Assembly: GCF_900188235.1 (NCBI RefSeq)
Contig: NZ_FZNT01000001.1
Span: forward strand, 248,001-312,000
Length of the DNA: 64,000 nucleotides
DNA from: Lutibacter agarilyticus
Lineage (GTDB): Bacteria > Bacteroidota > Bacteroidia > Flavobacteriales > Flavobacteriaceae
Direction of reading: 5' to 3'
Made by a program: the position numbers and the translations under genes
Notes under the pieces: generated by a model
Databases searched by the model: none
Told to the model about the DNA's origin: nothing
Seen by the model: the letters and a program-made list of their open reading frames with translations, nothing else
Part shown: positions 3,583 through 62,892 of the stretch, one piece after another
Layout: every line of letters starts with the position of its first letter
How positions within the stretch are numbered: the stretch's first letter is position 1

Positions 3583-3991
3583 TATTACTAAGTTCTATGG
3601 TTCGTAGTTGATTTTCGTTCGCTGTAATGGTAATTGTTACAGCATTTAAAGGTAGTAAATTTTCAACTTTATTTGGCCATTCAACTAAACACCAACTATT
3701 ACTGTAAAAATATTCTTCTACTCCCATATCTAAAGCTTCTTCTTCATCATTAATTCTGTAAAAATCAAAATGAAATACTTTTTCATTATTTTTAGTATGA
3801 TATTCGTTTACTAATGAAAAAGTTGGAGAACTTACGTTATCAGCAACACCCAACTGTTTTACAATTTCTTTTATTAAAGTTGTTTTACCAACCCCCATAC
3901 TTCCATAAAAAAGCAATACGTTGTTTTTTGCATTTTTAATTACTTCGGAAGCTATTTTAGGTAATTCGTCTAAAGTATAGTTTTTAGTCAT
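3575..3991 (-). CDS. tsaE: tRNA threonylcarbamoyladenosine biosynthesis ATPase TsaE
   Basis: TsaE is the P-loop ATPase that drives the TsaB-TsaD complex to form t6A37 on tRNAs reading ANN codons. The 138 residues include the Walker A GSMGVGKTTL (residues 30-39), the SSPTFSLVNEY switch (54-64) and FHFDFYR near 74. Length is normal for the family. It begins the tsaE-ald-DUF4258 run and follows the porX gene on the same strand. No clear -7 box is seen upstream. Confidence 0.93.
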   Translation of the reverse strand: MTKNYTLDELPKIASEVIKNAKNNVLLFYGSMGVGKTTLIKEIVKQLGVADNVSSPTFSLVNEYHTKNNEKVFHFDFYRINDEEEALDMGVEEYFYSNSWCLVEWPNKVENLLPLNAVTITITANENQLRTIELSNNE

Positions 3992-4080
3992 ACTTAATGC
4001 TCTTATTTTTTAGTTAACCAATATTCTTGTCAAAATATATTTTAGTTATTTTTAACAATAATACAAATAAACAATATAAG

Positions 4081-5631
4081 TTACTTAGGAACAAATATAG
4101 CGCACGGAATAATCATTTCTTCCAATGAAATTCCTCCATGTTGGTAGGTGTTTTTATAATATTTTACAAAATGATTGTAATTATTTGGGTAAGCGAAAAA
4201 ATAATCTTCCTTAGCAAAAATAAACGAACTACTCATATGTATAGAAGGTAGTTTAATGTCTTTAGGATCTTTAACCGCAAATACTTCTTTTTGTTCGTAG
4301 GTTAAACTTCGGCCTGTTTTATAGCGTAAATTAGAACTGATATTTTTGTCACCAATAACTTTTGAAGGCACTTTTGAGTTTATAGTACCGTGGTCTGTAG
4401 TTATAATTAATTTCATACCTAATTTTTGCGCCTTTTGAATCATTTCTAACAAAGGAGAGTTTACAAACCAACTGTTAGTTAACGACCTATAAGCTTTATC
4501 ATCGCTAGCCAATTCTTTAATAACTTCCATTTCAGTTTTGGCGTGTGAAAGCATATCTACAAAATTATACACAACAACCGTTAAATCATTTTCTTTTTCA
4601 TTGTTGAAATTATCGGCTAATTGTTTTCCGTTTTTAAGTGTTGTTATTTTATGGTAGCTAAATTTTAGATCTTTTCTTAGGCGTTGTAATTGCGCTTGTA
4701 AAAATTCTTCTTCATGTAAATTTTTACCTCCTTCATCCGTATCATCTTTCCAAAGCGTTGGATGTTTTTGAGCCATTTCTAAAGGCATTAAACCAGAGAA
4801 AATTGAATTTCGAGCATATTGAGTTGCAGTAGGTAAAATACTAAAATAAGGAATTTCTTCTTGTTTTTTATAGAATTTATTAATGGTTTTTTCAATAATA
4901 TTAAACTGGTCGTAACGTAAATTATCAATTACTACAACTAAGGTTCCGTTAGATTTTGATATTTCTGGTAGAATTAATTTTTTGAATAAATTATTGGAAA
5001 GGATAGGAGCGTTATCTTCATCATTCACCCAATCTATGTAGTTTTTTTTAATGAATTTAAAAAACAAAGAATTGGCTTCTTGCTTTTGACTTTCCAAAAT
5101 TTCAACCATTCCAGTATCGCTAATATTTTCGAGTTCTAATTCCCAATACACTAATTTTTTATACACATCAATCCATTCTTCATAAGAATTTACCATTGCT
5201 AAATCCATCGCAATTTTTCTAAATTCTTGTTGATAATTGGAAGTTGTTTTTTCTGAAACCAACCTAGAGTGATCTAAATTCTTTTTTAAACTTAATAATA
5301 TTTGATTCGGATTTACAGGTTTTATTAAGTAATCTGCAATTTTATTACCAATAGCATCTTCCATAATATATTCCTCTTCACTCTTGGTAATCATTACAAT
5401 AGGTAAATTAGGAAGTTTACTTTTTATTTCAGTCAATGTTTCTAAACCACTCAACCCTGGCATATTTTCATCTAGAAAAACGATGTCGTAATTATGTTCG
5501 TCACACATATCAATAGCATCAGCACCGTTGGTACATTTTGATACAGAATACCCCTTTTTTTCTAAAAAAAGAATGTGTGGTTTTAATAAATCTATCTCAT
5601 CATCAACCCATAAAATGTTTATCTCACTCAT
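4081..5631 (-). CDS. porX: PorX: response regulator with PglZ domain, regulator of type IX secretion
   Basis: The first 125 residues form a receiver domain with acidic pocket Asp10-Asp11 and phosphoacceptor Asp54 (FLDENMPG); the remaining 390 form an alkaline-phosphatase-like PglZ domain with VVVIDNLRYDQ near 231 and ITTDHGT near 412. In Porphyromonas and Flavobacterium, PorX responds to PorY and controls T9SS genes and gliding, and the PglZ part is a zinc phosphodiesterase; that is family knowledge. There is no DNA-binding domain. PorY is not in this window, but two T9SS cargo proteins are. It lies upstream of tsaE-ald, a common order in the family. Confidence 0.93.
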   Translation of the reverse strand: MSEINILWVDDEIDLLKPHILFLEKKGYSVSKCTNGADAIDMCDEHNYDIVFLDENMPGLSGLETLTEIKSKLPNLPIVMITKSEEEYIMEDAIGNKIADYLIKPVNPNQILLSLKKNLDHSRLVSEKTTSNYQQEFRKIAMDLAMVNSYEEWIDVYKKLVYWELELENISDTGMVEILESQKQEANSLFFKFIKKNYIDWVNDEDNAPILSNNLFKKLILPEISKSNGTLVVVIDNLRYDQFNIIEKTINKFYKKQEEIPYFSILPTATQYARNSIFSGLMPLEMAQKHPTLWKDDTDEGGKNLHEEEFLQAQLQRLRKDLKFSYHKITTLKNGKQLADNFNNEKENDLTVVVYNFVDMLSHAKTEMEVIKELASDDKAYRSLTNSWFVNSPLLEMIQKAQKLGMKLIITTDHGTINSKVPSKVIGDKNISSNLRYKTGRSLTYEQKEVFAVKDPKDIKLPSIHMSSSFIFAKEDYFFAYPNNYNHFVKYYKNTYQHGGISLEEMIIPCAIFVPK

Positions 5632-58687: not shown

Positions 58688-58707
58688 AACTACATGAATA
58701 TGTAGTT
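58688..58707. promoter_or_regulatory. Operator copy 1: AACTACAT-GAAT-ATGTAGTT
   Basis: Perfect 8-base inverted repeat with a 4-base spacer. A -7-like box TACATTAG lies at 58729-58736, 21 bases after the palindrome, and a half-site ATGTAG at 58753-58758. It precedes the NTF2-like gene by 145 bases. Candidate site for the LuxR-type regulator at 62251-62892. Confidence 0.65.
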
Positions 58708-58852
58708 CAATAGCTTTTTTCTTTTAGATACATTAGTGAAAAATAGTTACGAATGTAGATTAGCTCTCATACCAGTAAAGTATTTAATATGATTGTAAAG
58801 CTTTTTTCATTTTTAATTATAAAACTAATCACTAACTAAAACCTATTGAAAA

Positions 58853-59791
58853 ATGAAAGAAAAAGTAATGATTCTGTTTATGATTTTCACAATCATTGGA
58901 ACAGCTCAAAAGAAAAAAAATGGAACAATTTATATTGAACATCCGGCAATAAAAGTTGTTGAAGAAATGGAAAAGGCTTTTGCAGCAGGAAATAAAGATA
59001 AGGTGGCTTCGTATGTTTCTGAAGATTTTAAATCTTACAATGGCTCTGATACCAATAAAGATGCAAAAGGAAAAACAAAAGAAAATTTATTAAATAATGT
59101 CACCTTTTGGAAAGAAAATATTAGTTATTTAAAAATTGAGCGTTCAGCAGGTGCATATCCTGATGCATTGGAGTATAAAGATACTACGAATGACGATGTA
59201 GTTTGGGTGCAAACTTGGACTCACTTAACAGGTGTTCACAATAAAACAGGGGTAAAATTAGATATGCCTTTTCATAGGTTATATGTTGTAAATAAAGACA
59301 ATAAGATTCAAACAATGATTAATTATTTTGATGAATCTGTTTATGATGAAATTGGCGCTAGCTTTACTGAACGAAAAAATGGAACAATCTATAATCATCA
59401 TGAAAATATAAATAAAGTTAGAAGAATGATTCATGCTTTTGAAAACGATGATTTGGAAATTGCTTATAAATTTTATGATGAAAAATGTAAATTTAAAAAC
59501 ATTCATATGCCTTTAAATGAAACCTACACATTAGAAGAATCTATAGAAGGAGATTTAAAATTTAAAGAAAAATTTGAAATAAATAGTATTGATATTCAAG
59601 GGTATCCAGATTATTTAAATTACGGAATTAGAGATTCTAAAGTAGTGCAATCCTGGTGGATTGTTAGGCTCACAAGAAAATCTGATCAGAAAAAAATTAA
59701 TGTTCCAATTATGTTTCTTCATGATTTTAATGATGATGGTATGATTACCATGGAGAGTGCTTATTATAGTGCAAAACTATTAGAAGATTAA
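58853..59791 (+). CDS. Secreted protein with two NTF2-like domains
   Basis: A 312-residue protein with a signal peptide (ending GTAQ) and two SnoaL/NTF2-like domains (about 25-165 and 180-310). Each starts after the same KNGTIY sequence (about 21-26 and about 175-180), suggesting internal duplication. The first domain holds WVQTWTHLTGVHNKTGVKLDMPFHRLYVV, typical of the fold and like the lipoprotein at 26326-26838. No catalytic residues are assigned. An operator copy lies 145 bases upstream, so it is the best candidate target of the two-component system nearby. Confidence 0.8.
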   Translation: MKEKVMILFMIFTIIGTAQKKKNGTIYIEHPAIKVVEEMEKAFAAGNKDKVASYVSEDFKSYNGSDTNKDAKGKTKENLLNNVTFWKENISYLKIERSAGAYPDALEYKDTTNDDVVWVQTWTHLTGVHNKTGVKLDMPFHRLYVVNKDNKIQTMINYFDESVYDEIGASFTERKNGTIYNHHENINKVRRMIHAFENDDLEIAYKFYDEKCKFKNIHMPLNETYTLEESIEGDLKFKEKFEINSIDIQGYPDYLNYGIRDSKVVQSWWIVRLTRKSDQKKINVPIMFLHDFNDDGMITMESAYYSAKLLED

Positions 59792-59807
59792 TGTTTGAGT
59801 TAATTAG

Positions 59808-59841
59808 AAAAATAGAGGGGCTAATTGTTCTCTCTATTTTT
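59808..59841 (+). terminator. Terminator after the tandem NTF2 gene
   Basis: AAAAATAGAG and CTCTATTTTT form a 10-base stem with a 14-base loop followed by T, 17 bases past the stop. Confidence 0.75.
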
Positions 59842-59996
59842 TTTATTATATAATAAGATATAATTTTAAAATGAATGAGGCAATATTAAAAGTTATAAAA
59901 TCCATCATTCTGAATAACTTATCCAATGTTATAAAATAAAATTTAACATAGAACCGTTTCAAAATAAAACAGAAAAATAGATAGTATAAATCATAA

Positions 59997-60030
59997 AAAA
60001 AGCTCAAACTTTTAAAAGTTTGAGCTTTTT
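59997..60030 (-). terminator. Perfect palindromic terminator downstream of the small secreted protein genes
   Basis: AAAAAGCTCAAACTTTT and AAAAGTTTGAGCTTTTT are a 34-base perfect palindrome, 24 bases past the stop of the gene at 60054. Confidence 0.85.
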
Positions 60031-60053
60031 AGGTATTAACTAAAAACTGTAAT

Positions 60054-60350
60054 TTATTCTTTACCAATAATGCTAGGTGCAATGTTATTATAGTTTCTTA
60101 TGGCTTGTGCAAGTTTTAATTTCTTCTGCTGTTTCAAATAGTTTAAACTAGCCACAGTTGTTTCAACTTCTAGGTAAGAAATAATTATTTCTTTCTTTAA
60201 ATTTTCATTTTCTATTGAAGTCGTTTTATTTTCAGTAGTATTATTTTGCGAAGGAGGAGGAGGTAACAAATAATTGTCACTGCAAACGGAAGCTACTAAA
60301 TTTGTTGTTCCCAAAACGAAGGCTATTGCCAAAATGGTTGTTTTTTTCAT
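60054..60350 (-). CDS. Small secreted protein
   Basis: A 98-residue protein with signal peptide (ending VASVC), then a Pro and Asn-rich linker and a helical tail rich in Lys and Glu. No family is recognised. It lies downstream of another small secreted gene on the same strand with a terminator between them, so each may be separately transcribed. The divergent kinase gene upstream suggests shared control. Confidence 0.6.
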   Translation of the reverse strand: MKKTTILAIAFVLGTTNLVASVCSDNYLLPPPPSQNNTTENKTTSIENENLKKEIIISYLEVETTVASLNYLKQQKKLKLAQAIRNYNNIAPSIIGKE

Positions 60351-60408
60351 AATAATAGTAATTTTAATTAGTAGAAATATATTGGGGTAACAACGTCTAA
60401 ATTCTTTT

Positions 60409-60442
60409 AAAATCTTAAACCAAGAACCTAGTTTAAGATTTT
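60409..60442 (-). terminator. Terminator after the gene at 60456
   Basis: AAAATCTTAAAC and GTTTAAGATTTT form a 12-base stem with a 10-base loop, 13 bases past the stop. Confidence 0.8.
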
Positions 60443-60455
60443 TTGGTATTAATCA

Positions 60456-60785
60456 TTATTTTTTAGTAATGCGCAATGGCAGTATAAATTCTCTGTTTGG
60501 TTCTCCAGGAGTAGCGATCATTTTATGATTTATATGATCTCTTATATATTGTATTACATCAGGATTTGTAGAGTCAACTTTTAGCACAATAATATCACCT
60601 TCAGAACTAAAAGTAAATACAACGTTTACAACAAATTCTTCAGCTATTTTAAATTCTGGATCAGAAAGTAGATCTACTACTTGATTTCTAATATCTTTTA
60701 CGGGAATATCTGGAACAATTTCTGCGGCAAATAAACTTGATGTTGAAATAATTAATGCGATTGCGATGACTTTTAAATTTTTCAT
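60456..60785 (-). CDS. Small secreted protein, TonB C-terminal-like
   Basis: A 109-residue exported protein (signal ending LFAAE). The body has VVNVVFTFSSEGDIIVLKVDSTNPDVIQYIRDHI, a strand-helix pattern with GDI like the C-terminus of TonB-type proteins, but no membrane anchor or Pro-rich linker. It is divergent from the kinase gene; the 240-base spacer between them holds operator copy 2, so it may be controlled by the same regulator. Function unknown. Confidence 0.65.
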   Translation of the reverse strand: MKNLKVIAIALIISTSSLFAAEIVPDIPVKDIRNQVVDLLSDPEFKIAEEFVVNVVFTFSSEGDIIVLKVDSTNPDVIQYIRDHINHKMIATPGEPNREFILPLRITKK

Positions 60786-60901
60786 AATAAATAGATTTAA
60801 ATTATACTTTTCCTTTTTTAATTAGATTTTGCAATTTTACTATAGCTATATAAGTTGGTTTTCTAATTAATGTAAATGTAGTTACAGAATTGAGTGATTG
60901 C

Positions 60902-60921
60902 AACTACATTATTATGTAGTA
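60902..60921. promoter_or_regulatory. Operator copy 2: AACTACAT-TATT-ATGTAGTA
   Basis: Inverted repeat ACTACAT and ATGTAGT, 7 bases each with spacer TATT, plus a half-site ATGTAG (60876-60881) 20 bases before it. It lies 104 bases before the kinase ATG and 116 bases before the start of the divergent small protein gene. No clear -7 box follows at 20 bases; TATTTTTT at 60947-60954 is 25 bases away. Confidence 0.55.
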
Positions 60922-61025
60922 TTTGTTTAAAATGAGTAGGTTAGCTTATTTTTTTTAAAAGAAATTGTAAAAAAAACTTATCTTACATTGATAAATAATT
61001 GAATTTATAGTTTAAAAAATATTGA

Positions 61026-62174
61026 ATGTTTATTAAAAAAATTGATTACTTATTATATGTATTATTTTTTATAAGTGTTTTTAGTTTAAAAGCACAGGAA
61101 AATAGTGTGGTTGAAAATGCAACAAGAAACACAAGTTTTGATTTAGGTATTACCAAGGTTAGCTGGTACAATTCAAAGAAAGATTCAACGTATAATTTGA
61201 CGATAAAAAATAAGAATCTAAATAGCATTGAATTGCCTTATAACAATGCTTTTGTAGGTTTTGAATTTTCATTGCCTAATCATTTTAAACTAGAAAAAAA
61301 TTCATTTACATATAAATTTAAAGGACTTCATAATGATTGGAGAGTTTTAAGTGAAACAAAGATATTAACATTTACCAATTTACCACCAGGTAACTATACG
61401 TTAGAAGTGCAGGCCACAAACAATAAAGGGGAAGTAAATGAAAATCGAATTTCAATACCAATAATAGTTCATCAAATATATTATAAGCAATGGTGGTTTA
61501 TATGTATATTGATGTTTTTAGTACTGTTGTTAGCTGTTTTGATCAGAAAATATGAAATTTATCATATTAAAAAACTAGAAAAATTAAGATTAAGAATAGC
61601 TAGAGATTTACATGATGAATTAGGAAGTGTACTTACAGGAATTGCGATTCGTTCAGAATTAATTAATGAAAATATTGATGAACATAAAAGGAAGGAATTT
61701 TTAAATGATATGATGATTCAGAGTAGGGGAGCAGTTGATACTTTAAGCGATTTGGTTTGGGCTATTGATGCGCGAAATAACAGCCTTCAAAATTTAACGG
61801 ATAGAATGCATAATGTTTTGTATCAGCTGCTAAGTCCTCAAAACATTAAATTTACGTTTAAATGCTTTGATTCCAATAAAATGGAGTTAAACCAAGAGCA
61901 TAGACAACATATTTTTTTAATTTATAAAGAAGCCATCACAAATATTATAAAACATTCAAATGCAACACTTGTAAATATTTCAATAACCAAACAGAAATAC
62001 AATTTAAAATTAACAGTTAAAGATAATGGTACCAAATTTATTGAAGATATTAATAATTTAAATGGTAATGGCCTTCAAAATATGAAAGCTAGAACTGAAA
62101 AGATAAAAGGTGAAATTAAATTTACACATGATAATGGTTTTAAGGTTGAACTATTATTTGATTACTTGTATTAA
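61026..62174 (+). CDS. Sensor histidine kinase with Y_Y_Y domain (HisKA_3 type)
   Basis: Senses a signal outside and phosphorylates a response regulator. The 382 residues have a signal peptide (about 1-24), a Y_Y_Y beta domain (about 80-148), one membrane helix (155-173), a HisKA_3 dimerisation domain with His196 in RDLHDELGS, and an HATPase domain (about 285-380; IYKEAITNIIKHSNATLVNIS and NGNGLQNMKARTEK). The propeller repeats that usually precede Y_Y_Y are absent. The regulator gene follows 76 bases later. Confidence 0.9.
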   Translation: MFIKKIDYLLYVLFFISVFSLKAQENSVVENATRNTSFDLGITKVSWYNSKKDSTYNLTIKNKNLNSIELPYNNAFVGFEFSLPNHFKLEKNSFTYKFKGLHNDWRVLSETKILTFTNLPPGNYTLEVQATNNKGEVNENRISIPIIVHQIYYKQWWFICILMFLVLLLAVLIRKYEIYHIKKLEKLRLRIARDLHDELGSVLTGIAIRSELINENIDEHKRKEFLNDMMIQSRGAVDTLSDLVWAIDARNNSLQNLTDRMHNVLYQLLSPQNIKFTFKCFDSNKMELNQEHRQHIFLIYKEAITNIIKHSNATLVNISITKQKYNLKLTVKDNGTKFIEDINNLNGNGLQNMKARTEKIKGEIKFTHDNGFKVELLFDYLY

Positions 62175-62177
62175 TAA

Positions 62178-62197
62178 ATCCACATGAACATGTAGTT
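62178..62197. promoter_or_regulatory. Operator copy 3: ATCCACAT-GAAC-ATGTAGTT
   Basis: The right arm ATGTAGTT is the same as in copy 1; the left arm differs at two of eight positions and the spacer is GAAC. It ends 20 bases before TAATTTTG (62218-62225). This places it at about -30 to -50, the usual site for LuxR/NarL-type activators, so the regulator gene may be self-regulated. Confidence 0.6.
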
Positions 62198-62217: not shown

Positions 62218-62225
62218 TAATTTTG
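62218..62225 (+). promoter_or_regulatory. Predicted -7 box for the response regulator (TAATTTTG)
   Basis: TAATTTTG matches TAnnTTTG, 25 bases before the ATG. It supports a promoter for the regulator separate from the kinase gene. Confidence 0.55.
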
Positions 62226-62250: not shown

Positions 62251-62892
62251 ATGAAGAAGACAAATATTGCTGTTGTTGAAGACAATAAGGTTATAAGAGA
62301 GGGAATAGAAATGTATTTTACAAACGATCCCGAATTTACATGTGATATTACTGCGGATTCGGTGGAGTCTTTTTTAAAAAATGTGAGTCATTATCCAGAT
62401 ATTGAAGTGTTATTGTTAGATATAAATCTACCTGGTATGTCTGGAATTGAGGGGATTCATCATATCAAACATCAATATCCAAAACTTTCTATAATAATGC
62501 TCACAATTTACAAAGACGAGAAACATGTTTTTGATGCCCTAAAGGCAGGTTCAGATGGGTATTTGTTAAAAAACACACCGTTAAAATCTATAAAAAAAGG
62601 CATTCAACAAATTATGGTTGAAGGGGCTCCAATATCACCAGTTATTGCTAAAAAAGTAATCAGCTATTTTAATCCACAAAAACAACGGAAAAAAAATGGT
62701 TTTGAAGAACTGTCAAACCGTGAAATTGAAGTTCTACAAGCATTGTCAGAAGGATTACCATTTAAAAATATTGCAGACAAACTTTTTATAAGTATAGATA
62801 CGGTAAGATATCATACCAAGAATATTTATAAAAAATTACACGTAAACAGTAAGCTTGGAGCAGTAAATAAATATTTAAATCGAATATATTAA
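62251..62892 (+). CDS. LuxR/NarL-type response regulator
   Basis: A 213-residue DNA-binding regulator. The receiver (1-125) has acidic residues Glu10-Asp11, phosphoacceptor Asp57 (LLLDINLPG) and Lys108-like position in YLLKNT. The HTH (about 150-205) reads LSNREIEVLQALSEGLPFKNIADKLFISIDTVRYHTKNIYKK, the LuxR pattern. It is paired with the kinase at 61026-62174. The palindromes listed above fit binding by a dimer of this family. It ends 4 bases into the converging TonB receptor gene. Confidence 0.93.
   Translation: MKKTNIAVVEDNKVIREGIEMYFTNDPEFTCDITADSVESFLKNVSHYPDIEVLLLDINLPGMSGIEGIHHIKHQYPKLSIIMLTIYKDEKHVFDALKAGSDGYLLKNTPLKSIKKGIQQIMVEGAPISPVIAKKVISYFNPQKQRKKNGFEELSNREIEVLQALSEGLPFKNIADKLFISIDTVRYHTKNIYKKLHVNSKLGAVNKYLNRIY

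What the first reader, a model, noticed from the sequence alone, without database searches (positions are those of the whole stretch)
58688..62197. Three copies of a palindromic operator link a two-component system to its neighbours
AACTACAT-GAAT-ATGTAGTT (58688-58707), AACTACAT-TATT-ATGTAGTA (60902-60921) and ATCCACAT-GAAC-ATGTAGTT (62178-62197) occur upstream of the NTF2-like gene, the kinase gene and the LuxR-type regulator gene. Copies 1 and 3 end 21 and 20 bases before a -7-like box. Copies 1 and 2 have an extra ATGTAG half-site nearby. Position and symmetry fit a LuxR/NarL dimer, so a self-regulated local regulon is inferred. I did not see a fourth copy, though my scan was by eye.
Basis: partly seen in the sequence, partly recalled or inferred. 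Interest (0 to 1): 0.75.

Follow-up and report, generated by a model that had tools for sequence, protein, structure and literature searches.

The report
Self-regulating sensor switch for exported proteins
A 20-letter mirror-image DNA sign sits three times where an activator would dock at a promoter, and related bacteria keep the same layout, so a two-protein sensor system probably uses it to switch on its own regulator and a few exported proteins whose role is unknown.

Summary
In the 4.10 Mb genome (a Lutibacter relative) the palindrome has 10 places with up to two mismatches: the three in the window, six inside ORFs and one intergenic. Only the window's three have a Bacteroidetes-type -7 box 20-21 nt downstream. 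The layout is conserved. In 8 of 8 Lutibacter-level orthologous loci a copy precedes the regulator gene, one of them weak (4 mismatches). In 12 of 13 more distant family loci a related palindrome (CACAT-N4-ATGTG) lies between the kinase and the divergent gene, with the box at offset 21 facing away from the kinase in 12 of 12. Best reading: operator of the NarL-type regulator, acting as a class II activator of its own gene and of exported proteins.

The link to the NTF2-like gene (copy 1) has outside support: SnoaL/NTF2-like genes lie in operator-bearing divergent clusters of other genera. Binding, activation and signal are untested. The kind of system is known; nine literature searches showed nothing on this operator or regulon.

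The parts
58688..58707 (+). Operator copy 1, AACTACATGAATATGTAGTT, upstream of the NTF2/SnoaL-like gene
   Evidence: held-out profile of relatives' promoters ranks it 2nd in the own genome, E 4.2e-4
58729..58736 (+). Proposed -7 box TACATTAG of the NTF2-like gene, 21 nt after copy 1 (5 of 6 to TAnnTTTG)
   Evidence: -7 consensus from passages of PMC7366714
58853..59791 (+). Exported NTF2/SnoaL-like protein, 312 aa (SnoaL_2, residues 189-299; signal peptide by eye)
   Evidence: relatives of 49-51% identity in divergent clusters L097, L177, L183
60054..60350 (-). Small secreted protein sm1, 98 aa; no operator of its own at <=3 mismatches
60456..60785 (-). Small secreted protein sm2, 109 aa, proposed target of copy 2; TonB-CTD-like fold is a weak hint
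   Evidence: no Pfam match up to E 1; model pLDDT 79; best Foldseek hit a TonB CTD at E 0.036, none at E <= 0.001
60873..60880 (-).
60902..60921 (-). Operator copy 2, between sm2 and the kinase; on the minus strand TACTACATAATAATGTAGTT
   Evidence: ranked 1st by the held-out profile in the own genome, minus direction, E 1.4e-4, match covering model positions 2-35, i.e. without the -7 box
61026..62174 (+). Sensor histidine kinase, 382 aa: Y_Y_Y, HisKA_3, HATPase_c; no propeller
62178..62197 (+). Operator copy 3, ATCCACATGAACATGTAGTT, between kinase and regulator genes
   Evidence: a copy in the same gap in 8 of 8 Lutibacter-level loci, 7 with <=2 mismatches and 1 with 4; only 12th by the held-out profile, E 0.81
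62218..62225 (+). Proposed -7 box TAATTTTG of the regulator gene, 20 nt after copy 3 (6 of 6)
62251..62892 (+). NarL-type response regulator, 213 aa: Response_reg plus GerE; proposed binder of the operator
   Evidence: recognition helix VRYHTK

Best explanation
The palindrome is the operator of the NarL-type response regulator encoded at 62251-62892. When the kinase (61026-62174) phosphorylates the regulator, a dimer binds the two half-sites, whose centre lies 30-31 nt upstream of the -7 box, and recruits RNA polymerase as a class II activator. It turns on three transcripts: its own gene (copy 3, positive autoregulation), the divergent small secreted protein gene sm2 (copy 2) and the exported NTF2/SnoaL-like gene (copy 1). 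Shown: the copies, their positions, the fixed promoter geometry, its conservation in genus and family, and the lack of another convincing copy in the genome. Inferred: that this regulator is the binder, that binding activates rather than represses, and that phosphorylation is the trigger. Unknown: the signal and what the exported proteins do; my best guess is an envelope-facing response.
For: Own genome: 3 of 10 places with <=2 mismatches are in this locus, and only these have a -7 box at 20-21 nt. Genus: exact core CTACATNNNNATGTAG 30 times in 38 genomes, 19 of them in this locus or its counterparts by my count, 11 elsewhere, reversed control 11. A copy before the regulator in 8 of 8 Lutibacter-level loci. 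Box at offset 21 toward 15 of 16 small genes. A profile built without the window ranks copies 2 and 1 first and second in the own genome. Family: exact ACAT-N4-ATGT core upstream of 12 of 14 related regulators, shuffles 1.07%; divergent site with box at 21 facing away from the kinase in 12 of 12 such sites, background 118 of 2208, from 13 loci examined. A strict promoter pattern hits 13 of 14 regulator-bearing genomes and 2 of 383 others. Operator outer bases and recognition helix differ together: CTACAT with [VI]R[YF]H[TAS]K, CACAT with VR[STD]HIK.
Against: No binding or expression data. No enrichment at 3 mismatches. Copy 3 scores only E 0.81. 10 NTF2 orthologues in other Lutibacter genomes have no operator within 500 nt upstream, best 5-6 mismatches, including two genomes that have the regulator (G308, G326). 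Of ten regulators or regulator loci first looked at, only L083, L095 and L097 have the core before the regulator (3 of the 6 regulator upstreams read; in four others the kinase-regulator gap is under 40 nt and none of their kinase upstreams has it). The strict pattern was written from 12 of the loci it then found, so one search is partly circular. Many sites are related by descent and not independent. Toward the kinase, boxes at offsets 8 and 18 are above background in distant loci.
Confidence: 0.86

Rival explanations
1. The regulator binds the palindrome but represses: the dimer covers the -33 region, and the signal releases it.
For: The palindrome ends where a -33 element would be; TTG directly at the operator end in 12 of 12 distant divergent promoters.
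Against: The palindrome-to-box distance is fixed at 20-21 nt on many promoters, which a repressor would not need; a palindrome centre about 30 nt from the core element is like class II activation (29 bp for CRP, passage in PMC9314961).
Confidence: 0.08
2. Another DNA-binding protein, not this regulator, reads the palindrome.
For: No binding data; several response regulators exist in the genome (19 matches to the regulator at E <= 0.001).
Against: The palindromes track this regulator gene in genus and family, and their outer bases differ together with its recognition helix.
Confidence: 0.05
3. The palindrome acts as an RNA hairpin or is a remnant of a repeat element.
For: An 8-bp stem with a 4-nt loop could form.
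Against: In 22 promoters 0 of 8 pairs show a change on both sides, and 89.2% of 176 cells are paired, less than in all 500 shuffles. The sites lie upstream of the proposed -7 boxes. Likeness between the window copies stops at about 20 nt.
Confidence: 0.01

Closest known systems
NarL/FixJ (LuxR-type) response regulators, e.g. VraR and NarL
   Same: REC plus GerE domains over full length; palindromic site; partner kinase of the HisKA_3 type
   Different: Operator ACAT-N4-ATGT with 4-nt spacer; E. coli NarL uses heptamers in a 7-2-7 arrangement (heptamer recalled; 7-2-7 named in PMC9314961)
Reg_prop/Y_Y_Y sensor kinases of Bacteroidetes, including hybrid two-component systems (HTCS)
   Same: Y_Y_Y domain; relatives' kinases have Reg_prop propellers
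   Different: Separate response regulator with a GerE, not an AraC-type, DNA-binding domain (HTCS make-up recalled); the window kinase has no propeller
Class II activator-dependent promoters
   Same: Activator site directly upstream of the core promoter at fixed spacing
   Different: Bacteroidetes core promoter (TAnnTTTG at -7); activation not measured
CpxA/CpxR with CpxP (recalled, by analogy only)
   Same: A small exported protein gene lies divergent from the kinase/regulator genes and seems controlled by the regulator
   Different: CpxR is an OmpR-type regulator and CpxP an unrelated family (recalled); feedback on the kinase is not shown here

Membership tests
NarL/FixJ-type response regulator | Receiver domain plus C-terminal GerE helix-turn-helix | tested here: met
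   PF00072 E 7.2e-21 and PF00196 E 2.1e-17; VraR and NarL best PDB sequence hits
NarL/FixJ-type response regulator | Binds inverted repeats as a dimer | not testable with these tools
   Only conservation and helix/operator differences are seen
HisKA_3 (NarX/DesK-like) sensor kinase | HisKA_3 plus HATPase_c domains, membrane-anchored | tested here: met
   PF07730 E 5.6e-9, PF02518 E 9.3e-7; membrane segment seen by eye only
Propeller (Reg_prop) sensor | Reg_prop repeats before Y_Y_Y | tested here: not met
   Absent in the window kinase, present in 3 relatives scanned (L024, L026, L027)
Hybrid two-component system (HTCS) | Sensor, receiver and AraC-type domain in one chain | tested here: not met
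   Kinase and REC-GerE regulator are separate genes
Class II activated promoter | Activator site abutting the core promoter at fixed spacing | tested here: met
   Offset 21 in 15 of 16 small-gene promoters and 12 of 12 distant divergent promoters
Class II activated promoter | Transcription rises on activator binding | not testable with these tools
   No expression data
TonB C-terminal domain (for sm2) | Sequence or fold match to TonB_C | tested here: inconclusive
   No Pfam match for the window protein; 9 of the first 11 Foldseek hits are TonB/HasB/FusB/TolA C-terminal domains but the best E is 0.036

The most novel reading that the evidence does not exclude
A Flavobacteriaceae-wide signalling module in which one promoter architecture (palindrome, 20-21 nt, -7 box) is kept while the exported effector behind it is exchanged (SnoaL/NTF2-like, RidA-like, TonB-CTD-like sm2, and an unrelated 174-aa secreted family in Lutibacter litoralis) and the operator's outer bases change with the recognition helix. 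In the window species and in L. litoralis the kinase has lost its propeller, apparently twice, so the small exported proteins may themselves be ligand or feedback input of the shortened sensor.
Probability: 0.2. Interest if true: 0.65.

Novelty: new member of a known kind. Interest (0 to 1): 0.5.

Why it matters
From sequence alone it gives a two-component system of an under-studied phylum a defined operator, defined promoters and a short target list. Signal and function of exported SnoaL/NTF2-like and sm2-type proteins become testable with three reporter constructs. The CTACAT and CACAT operators with their matching recognition helices are a natural series for studying how NarL-type regulators change specificity.

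Tried and rejected
RNA hairpin: disfavoured by lack of covariation. Sigma-70 consensus scan: 28 promoter-like sites against 33.1 in shuffles, uninformative for this phylum. Families for sm2: no Pfam match for the window protein (weak matches only in other members), none in NCBIfam. PDB sequence search with the sm2 alignment: 4 matches at E 0.17-0.68, unrelated proteins. Structure of the L. litoralis 174-aa protein: mean pLDDT 34.7, discarded. Lineage-specific capture of NTF2 by the operator: my idea after seeing orthologues without sites; weakened when NTF2/SnoaL-like genes turned up in divergent clusters of distant loci. sm2 paralogues elsewhere in the own genome (L152, L153): no site at <=3 mismatches upstream; one two-mismatch match lies inside the L153 gene.

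Literature: nine searches. In their listings I saw no paper on this operator or regulon. I saw passages of PMC7366714 and PMC9314961; all others only as search listings.

Errors of mine: searches (NTF2 upstreams; distant regulator upstreams) read the wrong side of minus-strand loci; both were redone, and only one search is used for these. One search is still used for gene maps and for the G312 gap. The site list was picked by hand and leaves out the 4-mismatch site of G312.
Full report
What is there. The three palindromes are at the stated positions with 0, 1 and 2 mismatches. To the left lie a HhH-GPD (nth-like) and an AhpC/TSA (bcp-like) gene; then an exported SnoaL/NTF2-like gene (58853-59791 +), two small secreted-protein genes (60054-60350 and 60456-60785, both minus), a Y_Y_Y-HisKA_3-HATPase kinase (61026-62174 +) and a REC-GerE regulator (62251-62892 +) (signal peptides by eye). 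Of the five closest named matches to the regulator (75-80% identity) four are labelled Lutibacter, a genus of Flavobacteriaceae.

More than chance. In the 4.10 Mb genome there are 10 places with up to two mismatches. Seven lie outside the locus: 6 inside ORFs and 1 intergenic, none scoring above 3 of 5 for a -7 box at offset 20-21. The three window copies are intergenic and score 4, 5 and 5 of 5. At 3 mismatches there is no enrichment (72 places against 118 for the reversed control).

Conservation in the genus. The exact core CTACATNNNNATGTAG occurs 30 times in 15 of 38 genomes of the genus; by my count 19 are in this locus or its counterparts and 11 elsewhere, the reversed control giving 11 in all. 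The regulator is found at E <= 1e-40 in 9 of 38 genomes; one (G306, 38% identity) is more distant. In the other 8 a palindrome precedes the regulator: 7 with at most 2 mismatches and G312 with 4; in G312 TATATTTA follows at offset 20 (read). G306 has AAACACATTGTTATGTGATT there. Between kinase and divergent gene a site was found in 8 of 8 loci where that stretch is held, 1 of them (G308) at 2 mismatches and the rest at 0-1; one of the eight (G324) breaks off inside what I take by eye for the kinase gene, so its regulator was not seen. Relatives with several sm2 paralogues have further copies: four small-gene copies in G324, three in G326. In L. litoralis the divergent gene is an unrelated 174-aa secreted protein, yet the site and a TATATTTG box at offset 21 are kept.

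Promoter geometry. [quoted passage not shown] I listed 28 sites by hand, giving 36 site-gene directions. Toward small secreted genes 15 of 16 have a box (>=5 of 6) at offset 21, and no other offset from 0 to 39 exceeds 3 of 16. Toward the regulator 4 of 10 are at 20 and 4 of 10 at 21. Toward the kinase 0 of 8 are at 20 or 21. Copy 2 is therefore assigned to sm2. The palindrome centre is 30-31 nt upstream of the -7 box; CRP in its class II arrangement is 29 bp from the -10 element (passage in PMC9314961). Class II activation is inference from this likeness.

Held-out test. A sequence profile was built from 22 promoters of relatives, none from the window. In the own genome it ranks copy 2 (minus direction) first, E 1.4e-4, and copy 1 (plus direction) second, E 4.2e-4; the next hit is E 0.107. 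The copy 2 match covers model positions 2-35, so not the -7 box. Copy 3 is 12th, E 0.81. In 38 genomes at E <= 0.02 there are 36 hits in 14 genomes, of which 25 are in loci that supplied the profile and 2 are the window's. The other nine are four in G312 (C157, two at C160, C161) and one each in G319, G303, G301, G316 and G322. G319's lies inside an ORF; I did not look at the last four. The G312 hits lie upstream of an unlinked sm2 paralogue, a SnoaL_2 gene and a DUF6090 gene. At C160 the -7 box is not well placed, and at C157 a hairpin lies between site and gene (read), so these are suggestive only.

Conservation in the family. First, negatives. From I read the regions before six regulators of about 36-47% identity; 3 had an ACAT-N4-ATGT core (L083, L095, L097) and 3 had none (L029, L091, L093). 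In L092, L094, L096 and L098 the kinase-regulator gap is under 40 nt and their kinase upstreams have no such core. So the operator is not general to all related regulators. Then, with the regulator of G209 (L097) as query, 14 of 397 family genomes match at E <= 1e-60 (the query itself and G076 included). Within 320 nt upstream 12 of 14 have an exact core, one has one core mismatch and one (G195) none; shuffled upstreams have it in 1.07%. The 13 with a site have a -7 box (>=4 of 5) at the best of offsets 19-22, which was 20, 21 or 22 in each. Of 13 loci read in full (without G195), 12 have a second site between kinase and divergent gene, with the box at offset 21 facing away from the kinase in 12 of 12 (background 118 of 2208); toward the regulator 8 of 12 are at 21 and 3 of 12 at 20. 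Toward the kinase 2 of 12 are at 20 and 1 of 12 at 21, but 7 of 12 at offset 8 and 5 of 12 at offset 18, which I cannot explain; the kinase may have a promoter of its own beside the site. TTG stands directly at the operator's end in 12 of 12 divergent promoters, where a -33 element would be. A search for CACATN4ATGTGRTTGN20TANNTT in 397 family genomes hits 15: 13 of the 14 regulator-bearing genomes and 2 of the 383 others; the reversed control is 0 in the rows shown. Of the two, G129's match begins about 56 nt before a related regulator (41% to the window's) and G146's lies inside an ORF on the other strand. The pattern was written from 12 of these loci, so the count is partly circular; Fisher p = 1.8e-21 must be read with that in mind.

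Targets. Genes running away from the kinase in the distant loci include SnoaL_2/DUF4440 proteins (L097, L177, L178, L185, L186), relatives of the window's NTF2-like protein (49-51% over 311-313 aa in L097, L177, L183; a 313-aa one in L186 judged by eye from its start), RidA-like proteins (L097, L179, L182), dehydrogenase- or epimerase-like proteins (L097, L177, L183, L185) and an esterase (L180). In several loci these are second or later genes. L181 and L187 gave no family above its cut-off, and the long divergent ORF of L184 was not scanned. The link of this operator to SnoaL/NTF2-like exported proteins thus does not rest on the window alone. Against it: 10 NTF2 orthologues in other Lutibacter genomes have no site within 500 nt upstream, two of them in genomes that have the regulator.

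Regulator and operator differ together. The eight Lutibacter-level regulators read [VI]R[YF]H[TAS]K in the recognition helix and go with CTACAT (the weak G312 site and copy 3 have one deviating half). The CACAT-type ones read VRSHIK or VRTHIK, and G076 VRDHIK. This favours the local regulator as the binder but is not proof.

Kinase. Three relatives scanned have Reg_prop propellers (996-999 aa), while the window (382 aa) and L. litoralis (402 aa) kinases have none. The two short forms do not group in a ten-locus tree (supports 70 and 89 for the groupings that separate them), and forcing them together is rejected (p-AU 0.019). Two losses are likely.

sm2. The model has mean pLDDT 79 and order helix-strand-strand-helix-strand. 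Of the first 11 Foldseek hits 9 are TonB, HasB, FusB or TolA C-terminal domains, but the best E is 0.036. A hint only.

Verdict. It is a well-delimited new member of a known kind of system.

Noticed in passing
61026-62174; L025:4711-5919: The window kinase and that of Lutibacter litoralis lack the propeller that three scanned relatives have; the tree and AU test (p 0.019) suggest two independent losses.
   Followed up: partly
L025:3248-3751 and 3949-4473: In L. litoralis the place of sm2 is taken by two related 167- and 174-aa secreted proteins with no convincing family match, behind the same operator and -7 box.
   Followed up: partly
60054-60350; L024:1882-2205; L026:1403-1747; L082:1925-2936: sm1-type small secreted proteins vary in their middle but share a C-terminal tail ending in a KE-like motif in most of the 8 aligned.
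   Followed up: no
L152:5789-7357; L153:5992-6324: Three sm2 paralogues lie elsewhere in the own genome without the operator; the sm2 family occurs in 23 of 38 genomes of the genus, often in tandem.
   Followed up: partly
L156:5647-5800: In G312 an operator copy is followed, before an sm2 paralogue, by a hairpin with a T run that looks like a terminator; a short transcript may lie between.
   Followed up: no
L199, L207, L210 (G069): G069 has three further copies of the distant-type promoter, before a 215-aa, a 348-aa and a 402-aa protein gene; the 348-aa gene is followed by an MBOAT-like one (by eye). Its regulon may include surface acylation.
   Followed up: partly
distant loci L097, L177-L187, kinase side of the divergent site: Boxes toward the kinase are above background at offsets 8 (7 of 12) and 18 (5 of 12); unexplained.
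   Followed up: no
L088, L089, L090: A CTACATNNNNATGTAG copy lies near the end of a conserved long ORF in G313, G319 and G303 (three mismatches to the full 20-mer); taken as a coding coincidence.
   Followed up: no
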